Both the position numbers and the translations under genes were made by a program. 64,000 nucleotides of DNA from Aquabacterium sp. (GTDB taxonomy: Bacteria > Pseudomonadota > Gammaproteobacteria > Burkholderiales > Burkholderiaceae_C): positions 186,001 through 250,000 of the forward strand of contig JAHFQM010000007.1 of NCBI GenBank assembly GCA_023266355.1. The letters are read 5' to 3'. Positions 1,735 through 8,284 of this stretch are shown piece after piece. Positions within the stretch are counted from its first letter, which is position 1. The number at the start of each line of letters is the position of its first letter. The notes under the pieces are model-generated. The model was not told the DNA's origin and did not search any database. It worked only from the letters and a program-made list of their open reading frames with translations.

Positions 1735-2420
1735 GCCACGCGCTGCACCCACCGAGCCGTGCGCAAGCCGTTCTGTGCGGGCCGCCGCCCGCTGTGAGTG
1801 GCGTGTCAGGCCGGTGAGCCTGGCGCGCAAGTCAATCTGAGCCAGCCGCCGCCTGTTTGGCGTCGTGCGCCGCTGCTTGGGGGCGGCGCGCAAGGCGCGT
1901 GCGTGTGATCGGTCCAAGCTCGCAACCCGACCGGCGGACCAGATTCGGCGGCGCGCCACCCGCAGTGGGTGGCGCGCGGGTCACAACGGGCGGCGCATGG
2001 CCCGGGATGGGTGGCGCACCGCTCTGAGGCGCCCAAAGCCGAAGCCCGCAAGGCAAAGCGCGAGAGAGCGAACCCGGCGCACGAGGCTTGGCAGCGGAAA
2101 CCTGGCGTTGTGACCTTGGGTGGAGAGGACGACGGGGCCAAGCGCGGGGCCGTGAGGCACTTTGGTGCGGTTCAGGGCTGGAGCAGCCGAGCAATTGGCA
2201 CGCCGAGCGCGGTTGACCTGATGTTCGAGGCCTGAGTGCCGGGTTACGTTGATATTCCCGCACCAATCAGAAGGTTATTGGGCTGCCGACATTTCAATAT
2301 GGGTCATGCCCGCCGAAAGATATTCAGCACCCATGCATGACACGCAACTGTCATTCGTGCGTGTGAGACTGCCCTTCATAAATGCGCAGCTCAATGCGCA
2401 AATCAATCAGGGGCCGGAAA
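1735..2420 (+). other. Gene-poor spacer, GC-rich then AT-richer
   Basis: No convincing gene in about 690 bases. The left part (to about 2240) is GC-rich and carries three near copies of GGGTGGCGC between about 1965 and 2022. Short open frames occur on both strands, but none has a ribosome binding site or recognisable residues. From about 2240 the base composition becomes clearly AT-richer. This continues into the next gene and marks the left edge of the YD-protein island. No inverted ends or target duplications were recognised. Confidence 0.5.
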
Positions 2421-5400
2421 ATGCGATTCAACCTATCGATCAGGCGATGCTTGGTCATGTGCGCCGCTTTGTTTGTCAATGCTGCTTTGGCGCAGCAATA
2501 TGACGTATGCCGAATTGGTTCGGCCGTCAACGTTGATGCGGACGTTTGTGACCAGGCTGGTCTGAAGGGAGGTGGGTATTGCATCTCCAAAAACCCTCAG
2601 CAAGCCGTGCAAAGGTATGAGAATTTGTACAACGAATGGCTTGCGTTGATCAATGCGTCAACGCAGGGTGCCGCGCCGCAAATACAGGGGTCCATCACTG
2701 GCATGACAGGCAGCAGCACAGACAAGGAAAAGCACGTTCAAACGGATTTGTTTGGCTTTCAGAAGCAATTTCAAAATCCAGTGATTGTTGGCGCAGGGCA
2801 GTCTGATGTGCCGGTGTGGTTTGCTGAGGAATCACGGGCAGCATGTCAAAAATGCATGCCGGGGTACAAGAAGTCAAAAGCTTCTACGGAAACGTCGCTG
2901 GTTTGTGAGCCTACGTTTTATGATCGTTGTGAGATTTCTGAGCCATATAAAAAATATGAATCGAATATTTATTATCCAGATGAGAATGGCGATGCTTACT
3001 GCCCGAGTCTTGGTAAGGGCTGTAAGGTTTTTTATGTTGAGAATCAGCCGGATAGCCGCCCTGATGTTGCAGCTTTCTTTGTAAAATTCAGAACTGAATT
3101 TAATGCGAGAAAGAAGCAAATCCGGGATGAAATAATCTCAAATTGCTTTGCCGATGCGAGCTTGTTTAGAACGCATATTGATATATCATCTGATGATATA
3201 GAATTTTACGGATTTACTATCGATGGCGGGGTGAGGTCGGAGTATTTCAAATCAAGCATCGAGATTTGGGTATCCAAATTTGGGGCATATATTTATCCAC
3301 CTACTCTGGTGTGTAACAGGGAGATAATCAGAGATCCGGTGGTAATGCCTATTTCTTTTAATTTAGGCATCAGAAGCCCTGTGGAAGTAGCCTGCAAAAT
3401 GTGCGCCGAAGGCCACATCAAGTCTGCATCATCCACAGACGATGAACTCATCTGCGAGCCCGTTTCCGCCGAGGAGCCTCCTGAGCAAGACTGTCAATCC
3501 AGCCCAGGCTTTGGCAAACCCATCTATCCCCTGGATGGGTCTGAGCGCTTCACCCAAAACCTCGACTTGAAACTGGGGCGCAGATCACTCTACCTGGCCT
3601 ACAACAGCCTGCGCGCGCAGCCGGTTCAGTTCAACGGTGCAGTATCTCAAGCGTCTTACATGGGGGCTGGCTGGAGTGTGAACCTGCCAAAGTCTGCCTA
3701 CCTCGCAGCAAGCAATCTGTACCTTGAAACAAATCAGGGTGGGTTTGTCAATTTCTACGCTGCCGATGGGGGTGTCTGGGGCAGCAATGCCAGGCATTTG
3801 AGTGCAAAAAATGCCTCGGATGGGCAGATCCTCATCAGCAACATCGCCAACAACAGCATTGCCGTTTACTCGCCTTCGGGGCAGTTTTTGAGCGAAGTCA
3901 GCGCCAGCGGCGAAAAGCTTTCAGCGCAATACAATTCAGCGAACGTGTCCAGGCAAGGGCAACCTCTGCCTTCTTCCTTTTCGGATGATTACGGCAGAAC
4001 CATTGCGTTGACCTACGTCGATTCTGAATTATCGGGCTTGCTTGAAAAAATCACCGCACCTGATGGCCACGAGACTGCCCTTCAATACGGCGTTGACGAT
4101 TCGGTGCGAAAAATCATCTGGCCAGATGGCGGTTTCATTGATTTTCGCTACCAGGCAGTGTCAAGAAGCAAACCCAGCCTGTTGACATCTGTGGTCGATG
4201 AAAGCGGATCCGTCTACGCATCCATTTCCTATGACGGAGACGGCAATGCCATCGGTTCAAAATATGCTGGCTTGTCAACTGGATATTCAACTGCATACGC
4301 CACACCACCCTCTCGGGCAATGCGCACGCTGCAAACCCAGAGGGCCGGGCAGCAGGTCACACGTCGGATTGTGGAAGCCTCCGCACCGACGGGCGTGCGA
4401 GTGACGCAGCCAAACGGTGCGGTGGTTGAACTCACAAGCGTCGTGCAAGGCGGCGGCGGCACCCCCGCCAGCGTGCTTCTTTCGTCCATGTCACAACCTG
4501 CCGGTGCCGGCTGTACAGCAGCCAGCAGCGCTTTCACCTACGACGCCAATGGCAACAAGGCCAGCGAGGACGACTTCAACGGCCACCGGACCTGTTACGT
4601 CAGCACGACGGCTGCCAATGGTGCGGCCAACCTGGAGAAAGTTCGCGTCGAAGGCCTGAGCGGCGGCAGCGGTGGCAGCGACTGCGCAACCGTCACCCCC
4701 GATGGCTCGGCCCTGCCCACCGGCAGCCGCAAGGTCAGCACCCAGTGGCACCCCGACTGGGCGTTCAAGACCAAGCAGGCCGAACCCAACAAACGCACCA
4801 CCTGGGTCTACAACGGCCAGCCCGACCCCTTCAACGGAGGCACACCGGTCAGCTGCACCAGTCCCACGTACGGCGCCACCAGCGTGGCCGCCTTGCCCGA
4901 TGGCAAACCCATCGTGGTGCTGTGCAAGCGCGTGGAGCAAGCCACCACCGACGCAACGGGTGCATTGGGCTTTTCCGCCACCGTGGGCCACGGCGTGAGC
5001 GGCAACACCACGCCCGACACCCGCACCTGGACCTACACCTACAACCAGTACGGTCAGGTGCTGAGCGAAGACGGCCCCCGCACCGACGTGGCCGACACCA
5101 CCACCTACACGTACTGGCCTGACACCAGCTTCACCGGTGCCGACCCCCACGCCGTGGGCCACACCATGGGAGATCTCCAGGCGATCACCAACGCCCTGGG
5201 CCAAGTCACCACCTACAGCCAGTACGACAAGGCCGGCCGTTTGCTGGCCATGAGCGATGCCAATGGCCTGAGCACCACCTACACCTACTCACCCCGCGGT
5301 TTCCTCACCAGCCGCAGCCTCAGCGCGAGCGGCGCTGCGACCCGCACCGCCACTTATCACTACGACCCACGTGGCTTGCTGGACGAAGTCGGCCTGCCGG

Positions 5401-7985
5401 GCGGCGTGGTCAGCACCAGTGCAGGCCAGGCAGGGGCTACCACTGGCCGCCGTTACACCTTCCAGTACGACGATGCCCACCGTCTCATCGGCATGCGCAG
5501 CGCCAGCGGTGAAAGCGTCAGCTATGCCCTGGACAACAGCGGCAACACCACCCGCGAGGAATGGAAGAACGCTGACGGCAGCACTGCACAACTCATCCGC
5601 CGCGAGTTTGACAACCTCAACCGCCTGTGGAAAAACATCCGTCAGATCAACGGGCAAGACGCCATCACCGAACTTGGTTATGACGCCCGGGGCAACCTCA
5701 CAAGCACCCAGCGTCCGGCTGTGGCCGCGTATGGCGACACTGTCTCGCCCACCGACGTGCGCCGCTACAACGCGCTGGATCAACTCACCCGCATCGAGGA
5801 CGCTCTGAACGGCAGCACCAAGCCCACGACCCTCGTACCCAAGGCCAACGATGCTCTTCAGGCGCTGAATGCGCCCAACGGTGCGGGCTGGACCTACCAG
5901 CGCGACGGCTTCGGTCAGGTGCTGCTGGAAGTCAGCGATGCCGGCACCATCACCCAAACCTACGACACCGCTGGCAACCTCACTCAACGCAGCGACACGC
6001 GCGGCATCACCCAGACCCAGCAGTTCGATGCCCTCAACCGCCTCACCGCCATCCAGTACGCAGGCACGGGCGCCGATGCCAGCCTGAACCAAAGCTGGCG
6101 CTGGGACAGCAGCCCCTCGGGTGCCCCCTTGATGTGCGCCAACGGCCAGGGCCGCCTGTGCCAGATCAGCACGGTCCTGGGCACACGCGCCCTGTCGTAC
6201 GACGCCTTCGGCAACATCACAGGCCAGGCGCAACGCTTTGCGGCCTTGGACAGCAACAGTGCGCAGCAGGTGGCGAGCCAATGGGGCTACGACGGCGAAG
6301 ACCGCCTGAGCGCTAGCGTCGGCGTGGGCAACCAGAGCGTGGCCCTGGGGCGCGATGCCGAAGGCCGTGCCAGCCAGGTGCTGGGCTTGCTCAACGGCCA
6401 GGCGGCCGTGGTGGTGAGCGAAACCACCTACCAGGCCACAGGCGAAGCCGACCGCAGCACCTTCGGCAACCAGCGTGTTTTCGACCGGGACTTCGACATG
6501 GGCTCAGGCCTGAGCAGTGGCAGCCGCAGCAAGCCAGCGGCCACCAGCACCAGCCTGACCACAAGCAGCAGCAGCAACGACGATGGCGATGTGCCCATCC
6601 CCGCATGGGCGCTGTTGAGTCTGGGGGCTGGCCTCATGGCCACGTTGCGCAAACGCGCCAAAGCGCTTCACGGCCCTCTGATGTTGGTTTGCCTGACCAT
6701 GTTCGGCGCCGCGGTCTTGCAGCCAACATCTGCGCAAGCACAAGCCGCTGCTTCCTCGACGGAGACCTTCACCCACGACGCACGAGGTAACGTGCAAGGC
6801 ATCACCCGGGATGGCAATGCGGCCACCTACCAGTACGACGTGCTCGACCGCCTCAAGGCAGAAACCGGCCCAGTCAACCAAAGCATCACCTACGACGCCA
6901 ACGGCAACCGCACCGGCGATGGCCGTAGCAGCTACACCGTCAAGGACGGCAGCAATCGCTTGCAAACCCGCACGGGGGCGACCGTGACCTACGACGCCGC
7001 GGGCAATGTGGTTCTGGAACTGGTGCGCCTCAACGGCAAGCTCATTGCGCGCAAACTGGTGTACGACGCGGCCAATCAACTGGCCAGCGTGCGCATCAAC
7101 AATGTGCTTGTGGCCAGCTATCTTTACGATCACCTGGGCCTGCGCGGTCAGAAAACCCTGGCCAACCCACCCGCCGGCACCCCGGCCATCACCCTGTACA
7201 TCCACGACCCCAACGGCCACCTGTTCCAGGAGATCGCGGGCTCAGGCCCGCGCGCAGGCCAGGCCCTGGTGACCTATGTGTGGAGGGATGAAACACCCGC
7301 CGCCGTCATCTTCCATGACACGGCCAGCAGCCAGCGCATCGTCTATTTGGAGGTGGATCACCTCAACACCCCGCGCAGGGGCACCGACAGCACGGGCAAG
7401 GTTGTGTGGACATGGACCAGCGACGCCTTCGGCAGCACCGCGCCCAACGAAGACCCGGACGGCGACGGCATCAAGACCACCATCAACCTGCGCTTTCCCG
7501 GGCAGTACTTTGATGCCGAGAGCGGCTTGCACTACAACTGGCATCGCTACTACGATCCGCAAGTGGGGCGGTACACGCAGCCTGATCCGATTGGGGCACA
7601 GGGGGGATTGAATCCATATGCATACGTGCAGGGAAATCCGATCAGCCACACAGATTCTGAAGGTTTGCAATCGGCGCCACGTATTGGCGCGCCACCGACC
7701 CTGTATCTGCCGCCAAGTGTGACGCCATCAACTCAGTCGAGAGTTGATGCTACGATGAAGATACTATCTGATTTGGAAAAGACAGGCGGGCAGTATATGG
7801 ATTTTCAAGCGTTCTTGAAAACACATTTCCCAAGCAGTGCGCCATGGTGTCGTACCGTGTGTCCAAATGGTGGCGGCAATGGGGGAGAGTGTAAGCCTCC
7901 GCCATTAGTCGGCGTGCCATCGGGAAGCAATCCAGGCTGCTATAAAGTCTGCGCTGCTGGCCCATTTGTGTCTCCGTCACCTTGA
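2421..7985 (+). CDS. Giant secreted YD-repeat (Rhs-type) protein with mid-molecule membrane hairpin
   Basis: Protein of 1,854 residues. ATG 2421 was chosen over the upstream in-frame ATGs because AGGGGCCGG precedes it and it begins a clean signal peptide ending ...NAALA before QQYDVC. Residues about 25-350 are Cys-containing and AT-rich, with two copies of a C-x2-C-x2-G-(Y/H)-x-K-S...C-E-P module (starts near nt 2839 and 3391). A DUF6531-like entry follows (GKPIYPLDGSERFTQNLDL). Many YD repeats of the form YDxxGNxTxxxD fill about 500-1370. At about 1385-1441 come two hydrophobic helices (see separate entry), then more YD repeats and an Rhs core ending in GLHYNWHRYYDPQVGRY-TQPDPIG and NPYAYVQGNPI. 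The last about 105 residues are unique, AT-richer and hold five Cys. Rhs-type proteins deliver polymorphic C-terminal toxins; the tail here matches no toxin I recognise. Confidence 0.85.
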   Translation: MRFNLSIRRCLVMCAALFVNAALAQQYDVCRIGSAVNVDADVCDQAGLKGGGYCISKNPQQAVQRYENLYNEWLALINASTQGAAPQIQGSITGMTGSSTDKEKHVQTDLFGFQKQFQNPVIVGAGQSDVPVWFAEESRAACQKCMPGYKKSKASTETSLVCEPTFYDRCEISEPYKKYESNIYYPDENGDAYCPSLGKGCKVFYVENQPDSRPDVAAFFVKFRTEFNARKKQIRDEIISNCFADASLFRTHIDISSDDIEFYGFTIDGGVRSEYFKSSIEIWVSKFGAYIYPPTLVCNREIIRDPVVMPISFNLGIRSPVEVACKMCAEGHIKSASSTDDELICEPVSAEEPPEQDCQSSPGFGKPIYPLDGSERFTQNLDLKLGRRSLYLAYNSLRAQPVQFNGAVSQASYMGAGWSVNLPKSAYLAASNLYLETNQGGFVNFYAADGGVWGSNARHLSAKNASDGQILISNIANNSIAVYSPSGQFLSEVSASGEKLSAQYNSANVSRQGQPLPSSFSDDYGRTIALTYVDSELSGLLEKITAPDGHETALQYGVDDSVRKIIWPDGGFIDFRYQAVSRSKPSLLTSVVDESGSVYASISYDGDGNAIGSKYAGLSTGYSTAYATPPSRAMRTLQTQRAGQQVTRRIVEASAPTGVRVTQPNGAVVELTSVVQGGGGTPASVLLSSMSQPAGAGCTAASSAFTYDANGNKASEDDFNGHRTCYVSTTAANGAANLEKVRVEGLSGGSGGSDCATVTPDGSALPTGSRKVSTQWHPDWAFKTKQAEPNKRTTWVYNGQPDPFNGGTPVSCTSPTYGATSVAALPDGKPIVVLCKRVEQATTDATGALGFSATVGHGVSGNTTPDTRTWTYTYNQYGQVLSEDGPRTDVADTTTYTYWPDTSFTGADPHAVGHTMGDLQAITNALGQVTTYSQYDKAGRLLAMSDANGLSTTYTYSPRGFLTSRSLSASGAATRTATYHYDPRGLLDEVGLPGGVVSTSAGQAGATTGRRYTFQYDDAHRLIGMRSASGESVSYALDNSGNTTREEWKNADGSTAQLIRREFDNLNRLWKNIRQINGQDAITELGYDARGNLTSTQRPAVAAYGDTVSPTDVRRYNALDQLTRIEDALNGSTKPTTLVPKANDALQALNAPNGAGWTYQRDGFGQVLLEVSDAGTITQTYDTAGNLTQRSDTRGITQTQQFDALNRLTAIQYAGTGADASLNQSWRWDSSPSGAPLMCANGQGRLCQISTVLGTRALSYDAFGNITGQAQRFAALDSNSAQQVASQWGYDGEDRLSASVGVGNQSVALGRDAEGRASQVLGLLNGQAAVVVSETTYQATGEADRSTFGNQRVFDRDFDMGSGLSSGSRSKPAATSTSLTTSSSSNDDGDVPIPAWALLSLGAGLMATLRKRAKALHGPLMLVCLTMFGAAVLQPTSAQAQAAASSTETFTHDARGNVQGITRDGNAATYQYDVLDRLKAETGPVNQSITYDANGNRTGDGRSSYTVKDGSNRLQTRTGATVTYDAAGNVVLELVRLNGKLIARKLVYDAANQLASVRINNVLVASYLYDHLGLRGQKTLANPPAGTPAITLYIHDPNGHLFQEIAGSGPRAGQALVTYVWRDETPAAVIFHDTASSQRIVYLEVDHLNTPRRGTDSTGKVVWTWTSDAFGSTAPNEDPDGDGIKTTINLRFPGQYFDAESGLHYNWHRYYDPQVGRYTQPDPIGAQGGLNPYAYVQGNPISHTDSEGLQSAPRIGAPPTLYLPPSVTPSTQSRVDATMKILSDLEKTGGQYMDFQAFLKTHFPSSAPWCRTVCPNGGGNGGECKPPPLVGVPSGSNPGCYKVCAAGPFVSPSP
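6576..6743 (+). other. Mid-protein sorting-signal-like helix followed by signal-peptide-like helix
   Basis: Inside the YD-repeat protein, a Ser/Thr/Asp-rich linker leads to VPIPAWALLSLGAG (from residue 1391), about 15 hydrophobic residues and then RKRAK. This is the motif, helix and basic-tail order of exosortase/IPTL-type C-terminal sorting signals. Six residues later a second hydrophobic run (about 1419-1436) ends in AQAQA, like a signal peptidase I site. The predicted topology is a cytoplasmic basic turn with both large halves outside. Processing is inferred. I recall a RefSeq naming class 'midcut-by-XrtH' for such an architecture but cannot verify it here. Confidence 0.6.
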
Positions 7986-8002: not shown

Positions 8003-8284
8003 ATGGCCGTGGAAAACGTTGTGCTCCTCACAATTGTGATTGCATTGGCAATTTTTGATGCTTATGTCAGCTGGTTGGTGCTGAGGGCGGCTTCTTTCTC
8101 GAGAAATCAGAAAATCGCTCAAATCACAATCGTCTACGTGTTTCCATTATTCGGTGGAATTTTGGTTTGGTCATTTATCAAGTCAGATGGTCAGGGTGCT
8201 AGGTTTGACCCTTCGGCGGTGATTGACCGAACTGAGAAGGGCGCAAACATTGCGGTTGACGTGACAAGTCACACAAATCATTAA
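8003..8284 (+). CDS. Small two-helix membrane protein, candidate immunity protein
   Basis: A 93-residue protein whose ATG lies 17 bp after the stop of the YD-repeat gene, behind AGGGGGG with a short 4-nt spacer. Two hydrophobic helices are visible: about residues 5-27 (VLLTIVIALAIFDAYVSWLVL) split by Asp, and about 40-58 (ITIVYVFPLFGGILVWSF). A charged cytoplasm-like tail follows. The D-x-x-x-x-W...P-L-x-G-x-I pattern recalls the PLDc_N helical pair, but the similarity is loose. Position, spacing and the same AT-rich composition as the YD-protein tail make it the natural immunity candidate for that tail. No function is proven; it could equally be a membrane anchor or an unrelated small protein. 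Confidence 0.6.
   Translation: MAVENVVLLTIVIALAIFDAYVSWLVLRAASFSRNQKIAQITIVYVFPLFGGILVWSFIKSDGQGARFDPSAVIDRTEKGANIAVDVTSHTNH

What the first reader, a model, noticed from the sequence alone, without database searches (positions are those of the whole stretch)
6576..6743. One YD-repeat protein that looks built to be cut into two exported halves
Seen: residues about 1385-1414 have the order Ser/Thr linker, VPIPAW motif, hydrophobic helix, RKRAK. This is immediately followed by a second helix ending in AQAQA. Both flanking halves are YD-repeat sequence. Known: the first pattern marks exosortase-type C-terminal sorting signals, normally at a protein's end, and A-x-A after a helix is a signal peptidase I site. 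Inference: the chain makes a membrane hairpin, exosortase frees or anchors the N-terminal half, and signal peptidase frees the C-terminal half with the variable tail. It may also be an old in-frame fusion of two neighbouring genes, a sorted surface protein and a secreted Rhs protein. A mid-molecule sorting signal is unusual and gives a concrete processing model.
Basis: partly seen in the sequence, partly recalled or inferred. Interest (0 to 1): 0.8.

Follow-up and report, generated by a model that had tools for sequence, protein, structure and literature searches.

The report
Rhs protein with mid-chain sorting signal
A very long bacterial surface protein carries, in its middle, a membrane sorting signal followed by a second export signal, and relatives suggest that two neighbouring exported proteins were fused in one gene yet kept the signals for being cut apart again.

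Summary
The 1,867-aa YD/Rhs ORF (window 2382-7985, +) has at aa 1401-1427 a tripartite sorting signal (DGDVPIPAW, helix, RKRAK), then a basic loop and a signal-peptide-like helix ending PTSAQA. A profile made only from C-terminal tags of other proteins finds this internal segment at E=1.4e-11. It is 93-96% identical among three fused orthologues (dN/dS 0.02-0.10); helix 2 keeps little more than its signal-peptide character. Five Rhs proteins of one genome from another family carry the hairpin at the corresponding place. A second fused protein in this genome has split two-gene homologues elsewhere: one gene ends at the tag, the next begins with a signal peptide. Of 11 standalone tags in the genus, 8 lie 1.1-2.8 kb from an XrtH/XrtM-like exosortase gene; all 7 tag-bearing genomes, this one included, have that enzyme clade. 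Best reading: a two-protein precursor, cut by the exosortase at the tag and by signal peptidase I after AQA. Cleavage is not shown. An archaeal fusion protein with an internal tag cut by an archaeosortase (HVO_0405) is already known, so this is a new, evolutionarily conserved bacterial variant.

The parts
2382..7985 (+). YD-repeat/Rhs ORF, 1,867 aa (1,854 aa from the ATG at 2421)
2421..2492 (+). N-terminal signal peptide, aa 14-37 (MRFNLSIRR...NAALA|QQ), by inspection
   Evidence: no signal-peptide predictor was available
4659..6491 (+). conserved N-side YD region, aa 760-1370
   Evidence: identity to the two orthologues 83-84% over aa 760-1290 and 93-96% over aa 1290-1370; to G647 proteins 42-46% over aa 760-1290 (rows A, B, C, E) but only 15% over aa 1290-1370
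6495..6581 (+). Ser/Thr-rich variable linker, aa 1372-1400
   Evidence: 73-86% identity with gaps, dN/dS 0.24-0.88
6582..6662 (+). internal tripartite sorting signal DGDVPIPAWALLSLGAGLMATLRKRAK, aa 1401-1427
   Evidence: profile of C-terminal tags E=1.4e-11; dN/dS 0.02-0.10; 52% identity to G647 hairpins
6663..6740 (+). basic loop and second helix, signal-peptide-like, ending ...QPTSAQA (proposed signal peptidase I site after aa 1453; alternative after aa 1455)
6741..7982 (+). proposed second product: C-side YD repeats, Rhs core, variable tail, aa 1454-1867
7422..7667 (+). Rhs core domain TIGR03696, aa 1681-1762
   Evidence: 90.3 bits, cut-off 32.5
7668..7982 (+). variable C-terminal tail, aa 1763-1867
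   Evidence: 19-28% identity to the two orthologues over alignable parts of aa 1785-1860

Best explanation
The gene encodes a fused precursor of two exported YD/Rhs polypeptides. The N-terminal signal peptide starts export. The VPIPAW tag stops it in the membrane with RKRAK inside, and the next helix re-enters the membrane as a second signal peptide, so the chain makes a membrane hairpin with a short cytoplasmic loop. The XrtH/XrtM-like exosortase cuts at or beside the tag and sorts or anchors the N-half. Signal peptidase I cuts after AQA and releases the C-half with the Rhs core and variable tail. The arrangement arose by in-frame fusion of a tagged-protein gene with a following secreted Rhs gene. 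It was kept, either because equal amounts of two partners are useful or because both halves build one YD shell. Shown: anatomy, constraint, corresponding position in two bacterial families, fusion state in a sister case, enzyme co-occurrence. Inferred: topology, both cuts, which enzyme acts, fusion history of this particular gene, fate of the halves.
For: (1) A profile of nine C-terminal tags from outside this genome scores the internal segment at E=1.4e-11 and three other internal segments at 1.0e-12 to 1.3e-11. (2) Tag dN/dS 0.02-0.10 with pS 0.27-0.47; helix 2 is only 35-38% identical between window and either orthologue. (3) In G647, another family, five Rhs ORFs have the hairpin; the C-half is homologous in 5 of 5 (best E=5e-76) and the N-half in 4 of 5 (best E=3e-89), the N-side similarity ending 117 residues before the tag in the window and about 100 in G647_A; the tag is 52% identical, the 80 aa before it 15%, helix 2 11-17%. 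(4) 9 of 9 hairpins have a net-positive loop and an A-x-A after helix 2. (5) Split versus fused: L026 is one 3,249-aa ORF; G346, G647 and three loci of G408 have the first part as a gene ending at the tag and a separate next gene with a signal peptide, transglutaminase and Rhs repeats. (6) Of 42 genus genomes, 7 have the tag (E<=1e-5) and all 7 are among the 10 with the exosortase, Fisher p=4.4e-6. (7) 8 of 11 standalone tags in the genus lie 1.1-2.8 kb from such an exosortase gene.
Against: No cleavage, protein or expression data. None of the 4 fused genes of the genus lies near an enzyme gene. In this genome and G421 the only enzyme of the clade sits beside a protein with another tag (DGDVPTLPEW, IPTL type), not beside a VPLPxW tag, so that it serves VPIPAW is inferred. 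The 42 genomes are related and some are incomplete; four of the 7 tag-bearing genomes supplied rows of the profile. XrtB-like enzymes are present too and their co-occurrence was not tested. Constraint on the tag could serve a membrane hairpin without cutting. C-half relatives in G402 and G431 read through YD sequence without a hairpin, so it is not needed for every such protein. Outside the genus the hairpin was seen in one of 399 order-level genomes and in none of 399 family genomes outside this species with a two-row profile of unknown sensitivity. The structure model failed (mean pLDDT 35).
Confidence: 0.67

Rival explanations
1. The hairpin is a permanent membrane anchor: the protein stays whole and the two YD halves lie on the periplasmic side of one uncut two-helix anchor.
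For: Topology is satisfied without cutting; loop net positive in 9 of 9 hairpins.
Against: Helix 1 is constrained as a specific tag sequence of the same kind as tags that end other proteins, 8 of 11 of them beside exosortase genes, while helix 2 changes freely but keeps A-x-A in 9 of 9. A simple anchor would need neither.
Confidence: 0.15
2. The second half is made separately by internal translation start inside the tag or loop, so it is two overlapping genes in one frame.
For: ATG codons exist in the hairpins of the window gene, L085, L092 and L026.
Against: None of the five G647 hairpins contains an ATG, and the ATGs of the window hairpin have at most a 3-base Shine-Dalgarno match. The ATGs nearest helix 2 would give a signal peptide without a basic n-region.
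Confidence: 0.05
3. Fusion scar or assembly artefact: two genes joined by chance, the signals decaying.
For: For the C5 protein the fused state looks derived.
Against: Three independent assemblies of the genus (window gene) and five ORFs of another family carry it; the tag is under strong constraint. Haft 2006 (PMC1569441, passages) suggested that internal PEP-CTERM regions may be non-functional because they vary more; here the opposite holds.
Confidence: 0.03
4. The tag is real and cut, but by one of the XrtB-like exosortases, not by the XrtH/XrtM-like enzyme.
For: Three XrtB-like enzymes in this genome, two with EpsI-like genes next to them and one fused to an EpsI domain. The XrtH/XrtM-like enzyme of this genome has a neighbour with a different tag.
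Against: The tag tracks the XrtH/XrtM-like clade in the genus and 8 of 11 standalone tags sit near it. PEP-type tags occur in genus genomes without it (G424, G405, G416, G418, G432). The distribution of XrtB was not tested.
Confidence: 0.1

Closest known systems
HVO_0405 of Haloferax volcanii, ArtA (archaeosortase) substrate
   Same: Protein from a fusion of two genes, with a central cleavage site used by an enzyme of the exosortase/archaeosortase superfamily, shown by western blot (PMC7157517, passages; the original paper, Abdul Halim 2017, known to me only by its title in a reference list; not held).
   Different: Archaeal and described as strain-specific; here bacterial, Rhs/YD, found in several species and two families, with a second signal-peptide-like helix right after the tag. 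Whether HVO_0405 has such a helix I did not see.
MXAN_5598 of Myxococcus xanthus (internal MYXO-CTERM)
   Same: Adhesin region, internal tag, then a second domain; the authors suggest a gene fusion and processing of the N-part (PMC11980579, passages).
   Different: Different tag (invariant Cys) and an unrelated CPBP-family protease.
PEP-CTERM / IPTL-CTERM sorting signals with exosortases
   Same: Motif, helix, basic cluster; exosortase with Cys, Arg, His.
   Different: PEP-CTERM regions sit near the extreme C-terminus (87% with fewer than ten further residues; PMC1569441, passages); this VP[IL]PxW tag matches no NCBIfam tag model over its cut-off.
Rhs polymorphic toxins and Tc toxin B/C shells
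   Same: YD repeats, Rhs core, variable tail; best solved-structure matches are an Rhs family protein (7q97) and Tse5 (8cp6), with TcB-TcC fusions further down.
   Different: Apparently exported by a signal peptide, with a membrane hairpin inside the YD region.

Membership tests
exosortase-type tripartite sorting signal | short motif, hydrophobic helix, basic cluster | tested here: met
   A2 profile E=1.4e-11
exosortase-type tripartite sorting signal | location at the extreme C-terminus | tested here: not met
   440 residues follow the tag; the tag class itself is C-terminal in the 11 standalone genus cases
exosortase-type tripartite sorting signal | exosortase in the same genome | tested here: met
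exosortase-type tripartite sorting signal | cleavage at the motif | not testable with these tools
   needs protein data
IPTL-CTERM (TIGR04174) | score over 20.5 bits | tested here: not met
   window segment not listed even at E<=10, where 7 other places of this genome were, 4 of them over the cut-off
exosortase superfamily (enzyme at C10, L011) | TIGR04178 signature over cut-off and conserved Cys, Arg, His | tested here: met
   37.3 bits against 23; all three residues in 16 of 17 aligned rows, row L105 being unrelated
XrtH (TIGR04177) | score over 86 bits | tested here: not met
   48.2 bits; three relatives 42-60 bits
XrtM (TIGR04300) | score over 125 bits | tested here: not met
   61.0 bits; three relatives 59-73 bits
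Rhs/YD-repeat protein | YD repeats and Rhs-associated core over cut-off | tested here: met
   TIGR01643 105.5 bits, TIGR03696 90.3 bits
Sec signal peptide (helix 2) | basic n-region, hydrophobic core, A-x-A at -3/-1 | tested here: met
   by hydropathy and inspection in 9 of 9 hairpins; no trained predictor was available
HVO_0405-like internal tag in a gene fusion | split homologues of the fused protein | tested here: inconclusive
   found for the sister protein L026; no split form of the window gene that bears a tag was found

The most novel reading that the evidence does not exclude
A conserved bacterial one-gene, two-exported-proteins architecture: a YD/Rhs shell is made as a precursor with a membrane hairpin and parted in the membrane by a so far unnamed exosortase clade and signal peptidase I. 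The tagged half would stay on the surface and the half with the variable tail would be free to assemble with it, as a covalent version of two-chain Rhs systems. The same exosortase clade runs operons of tagged surface proteins with secreted transglutaminase-Rhs partners.
Probability: 0.5. Interest if true: 0.82.

Novelty: new variant of a known kind. Interest (0 to 1): 0.7.

Why it matters
Exosortase cleavage is hard to see because only about 25 residues are removed from the usual substrate. A substrate whose cleavage would give two large, separately detectable products makes a bacterial exosortase directly testable, as HVO_0405 did for ArtA. It also links an unassigned exosortase clade to secreted Rhs proteins and suggests how a YD shell could be built from two exported chains made in equal amounts.

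Tried and rejected
Rejected as matches: the 136-aa segment search of 299 family genomes gave two places in this genome; its three other hits (G078, G197, G223) were unrelated sequence or ordinary YD repeats. Three truncated ones (L032, L040, L044) were not resolved. Of 11 read in frame, L030 and L033 have P-L-P-A-W tags at the C-terminus, L035 and L041 PEP-type tags, L042 a VAVPLW tail; L038 is another kind of fusion (see noticed); five looked like chance. L105 (G425) was dropped from the exosortase set because it lacks the Cys motif. In the order search two of 17 places were chance (L162, L164), 8 were at or near the C-terminus and 7 internal.

Led nowhere: plasmid searches for the hairpin (none; one Azoarcus record matching only the part after the hairpin,159 records, the 20 listed matching from residue 65-68 on, that is after the hairpin); AlphaFold model of aa 1180-1700 (mean pLDDT 35), not used; papers with 'midcut', 'XrtH', or 'exosortase' with 'midcut' or 'IPTL-CTERM' gave nothing relevant.

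Considered and rejected: internal start, fusion scar, artefact (see rivals).

Full report
What is there. The ORF at window 2382-7985 (+) encodes 1,867 aa. It has an N-terminal signal peptide by inspection, a Cys-rich variable N-terminal region, YD repeats, an Rhs core at aa 1681-1762 and a variable tail. At aa 1372-1453 lie a Ser/Thr linker, DGDVPIPAWALLSLGAGLMATLRKRAK, a short basic loop and a hydrophobic helix that ends QPTSAQA. Best 15-residue Kyte-Doolittle means are 1.66 for helix 1 and 2.24 for helix 2; the loop has four basic and no acidic residues.

Is it a sorting signal? NCBIfam models do not recognise it over their cut-offs. I therefore built a profile from nine tags that end other proteins: seven from the genus, one from a metagenome-assembled genome titled Pseudomonadota (L086), one from another genus of the family (G346) (alignment A2). 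None comes from this genome. Searched over 42 genomes of the genus, it gave 15 places at E<=1.1e-4. Seven are the C-terminal tags that were in the profile. Four are other C-terminal tags (G408:C75, C39, C106 and G429:C661). Four are internal: window E=1.4e-11, a second protein of this genome (C5) 1.0e-12, G421 5.2e-12 and G399 1.3e-11. Of the next seven places I read six, all ordinary PEP-type C-terminal tags; the seventh (G408:C12) was not read.

Conservation. The genus search with a 528-aa query around the hairpin found it in three of 42 genomes: this one, G399 and G421. The three other hits (G402 and two in G431, 40-44% identity) cover only the part after the hairpin; there the YD sequence runs on upstream without a hairpin, in a gene that begins with its own signal peptide about 400 residues earlier. 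G399 matches Aquabacterium commune DSM 11901 (L085: same 1,719-aa frame and segment), so the genus is taken to be Aquabacterium. Between the three orthologues the tag is 93-96% identical with dN/dS 0.02-0.10, and its pS (0.27-0.47) is about as high as that of the YD regions, so recent gene conversion does not explain it. Helix 2 with its loop is 35-38% identical between the window and either orthologue, and 84% between the other two. This is what one expects of a specific signal followed by a signal peptide, where mainly composition matters.

The same thing in another family. A profile of four fused hairpins (A3) searched over 399 genomes of the order found, besides this genome, one genome with fused hairpins: G647, of another family, with five Rhs ORFs. 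The C-half of the window protein is homologous to all five (best E=5e-76) and the N-half to four (best E=3e-89); the fifth, G647_D, is N-truncated. The N-side similarity ends 117 residues before the tag in the window and about 100 before it in G647_A; the C-side similarity begins about 12 residues after AQA. So the hairpin sits at the corresponding place. The tag is 52% identical (14 of 27), while the 80 residues before it are 15% identical and the loop and helix 2 are 11-17% identical. All nine hairpins (four of the genus, five of G647) have a net-positive loop and A-x-A after helix 2. The five G647 copies are close to each other in sequence, so they are not five independent cases.

Origin by fusion. 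A second protein of this genome (L026:3843-13592, minus strand, 3,249 aa) has a squalene-cyclase-like region and a He_PIG domain, then the same hairpin, then a transglutaminase domain, DUF6531 and Rhs repeats. In G346 (other genus), G647 (other family) and at three loci of G408 (same genus), the first part is a gene of its own that ends within a few residues of the tag's basic cluster, and the next gene begins with a signal peptide and carries transglutaminase, DUF6531 and Rhs repeats. So the split state is the wider one and fusion looks derived here, with both signals kept. For the window gene I found no split form that bears the tag. YD gene pairs in which the second gene has its own signal peptide but the first has no tag exist in G099 (three pairs), G174 and G402; in G395 only the first gene was read.

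The enzyme. This genome has three XrtB-like exosortases, two over the XrtB cut-off, and a short one at C10 with NGCEG, NQLR and LHG motifs, scoring 61.0 bits for XrtM and 48.2 for XrtH, below both cut-offs but over the superfamily cut-off. Homologues with Cys, Arg and His were found in 10 of 42 genus genomes, 16 genes; an eleventh genome's hit, L105, lacks the Cys motif and was dropped. All 7 genomes with the tag at E<=1e-5 are among these 10 (Fisher p=4.4e-6; four of the 7 supplied rows of A2). With profile A1, made only from this genome's two segments, 6 of 6 at E<=1e-4 (p=4.0e-5; this genome included). The genomes are related, so these p-values are too optimistic. Of 11 standalone tags in the genus at E<=1.1e-4, 8 lie 1.1-2.8 kb from such an enzyme gene. 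Seven of these share one layout: enzyme, a membrane protein, tagged protein (cyclase-like or leucine-rich repeats), then secreted partners; Rhs repeats were confirmed in 7 of 7 and a transglutaminase domain in 6 of 7. Of the 16 enzyme genes, 8 are these, 4 (this genome, G399:C4, G421, G429) lie beside a protein with a DGDVPTLPEW tag of IPTL type, and 4 showed no tag in the flanks I scanned (G408:C86, G409, G423, G368). None of the four fused genes of the genus has the enzyme nearby. So in this genome the only enzyme of the clade has another kind of tagged neighbour; that it also serves VPIPAW rests on the shared DGDVP start, the co-occurrence and its relatives.

How it most likely works. Sec export starts at the N-terminus, the tag helix stops with its basic cluster inside, and helix 2 starts a second export. 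The exosortase acts at the tag and signal peptidase I after AQA. Anatomy, constraint, co-occurrence and the split/fused states of the sister protein are shown; topology, both cuts and the fate of the products are inferred.

What is known. PEP-CTERM regions lie near the C-terminus virtually without exception, and the authors thought internal ones may be non-functional because they vary more (PMC1569441, passages). Here the internal tag is the best kept part of its neighbourhood. An internal MYXO-CTERM in a possible gene fusion is discussed for MXAN_5598 (PMC11980579, passages and reference list). Central cleavage of the fusion protein HVO_0405 depends on ArtA and on lipid enzymes (PMC7157517, passages). 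So the idea of an internal tag in a fusion protein is not new. I found no report of it for a bacterial exosortase or for Rhs proteins in the searches; I read the listings only (20 of 21, 25 of 32 and 15 of 16 papers shown), and that library holds open-licence papers only.

Verdict. Observation confirmed; interpretation supported as far as sequence can take it; a new variant of a known kind, with a clear experimental test.

Noticed in passing
L087, L088, L089, L090, L091, L093, L094, L059, L174: Recurrent gene cluster: XrtH/XrtM-like exosortase, a membrane protein (the three examined had no NCBIfam match), a tagged cyclase-like or leucine-rich-repeat protein, then secreted proteins including transglutaminase and Rhs genes (in L174 the enzyme lies at the other end). 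One Rhs protein (L088:5562-10307) ends in a Tox-REase-7 domain.
   Followed up: partly
G000:C5, L026:3843-13592 (-): Second fused protein of the same genome with the same hairpin between a cyclase-like part and a transglutaminase-Rhs part.
   Followed up: yes
L067, L068, L070, L152: Adjacent YD gene pairs in which the first gene ends in mid-repeat without a tag and the second begins with its own signal peptide; possible two-chain secreted Rhs shells.
   Followed up: partly
window 2499-4181 and 7668-7982: The N-terminal ~600 aa and the C-terminal tail are both variable among the three orthologues (18-31% identity over alignable parts), the YD regions between are 67-96% identical.
   Followed up: partly
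window 8003-8284 (+): Small 93-aa membrane-protein-like ORF directly after the Rhs gene, no Pfam match; could be a partner of the variable tail.
   Followed up: partly
L171:5841-8561, L172:10007-11794: In G647 two extra Rhs ORFs that lack the N-terminal part but keep the hairpin lie downstream of full-length copies, as if modules were displaced or duplicated.
   Followed up: no
L002:1471-3102 (+): An XrtB-like exosortase fused to an EpsI-like domain in one ORF.
   Followed up: no
L038 (G027:C81:2330-2512, minus strand): A different fusion by inspection: a polytopic membrane protein runs in frame into a signal-peptide-like helix ending GEAQA and an exported-looking repeat protein.
   Followed up: no
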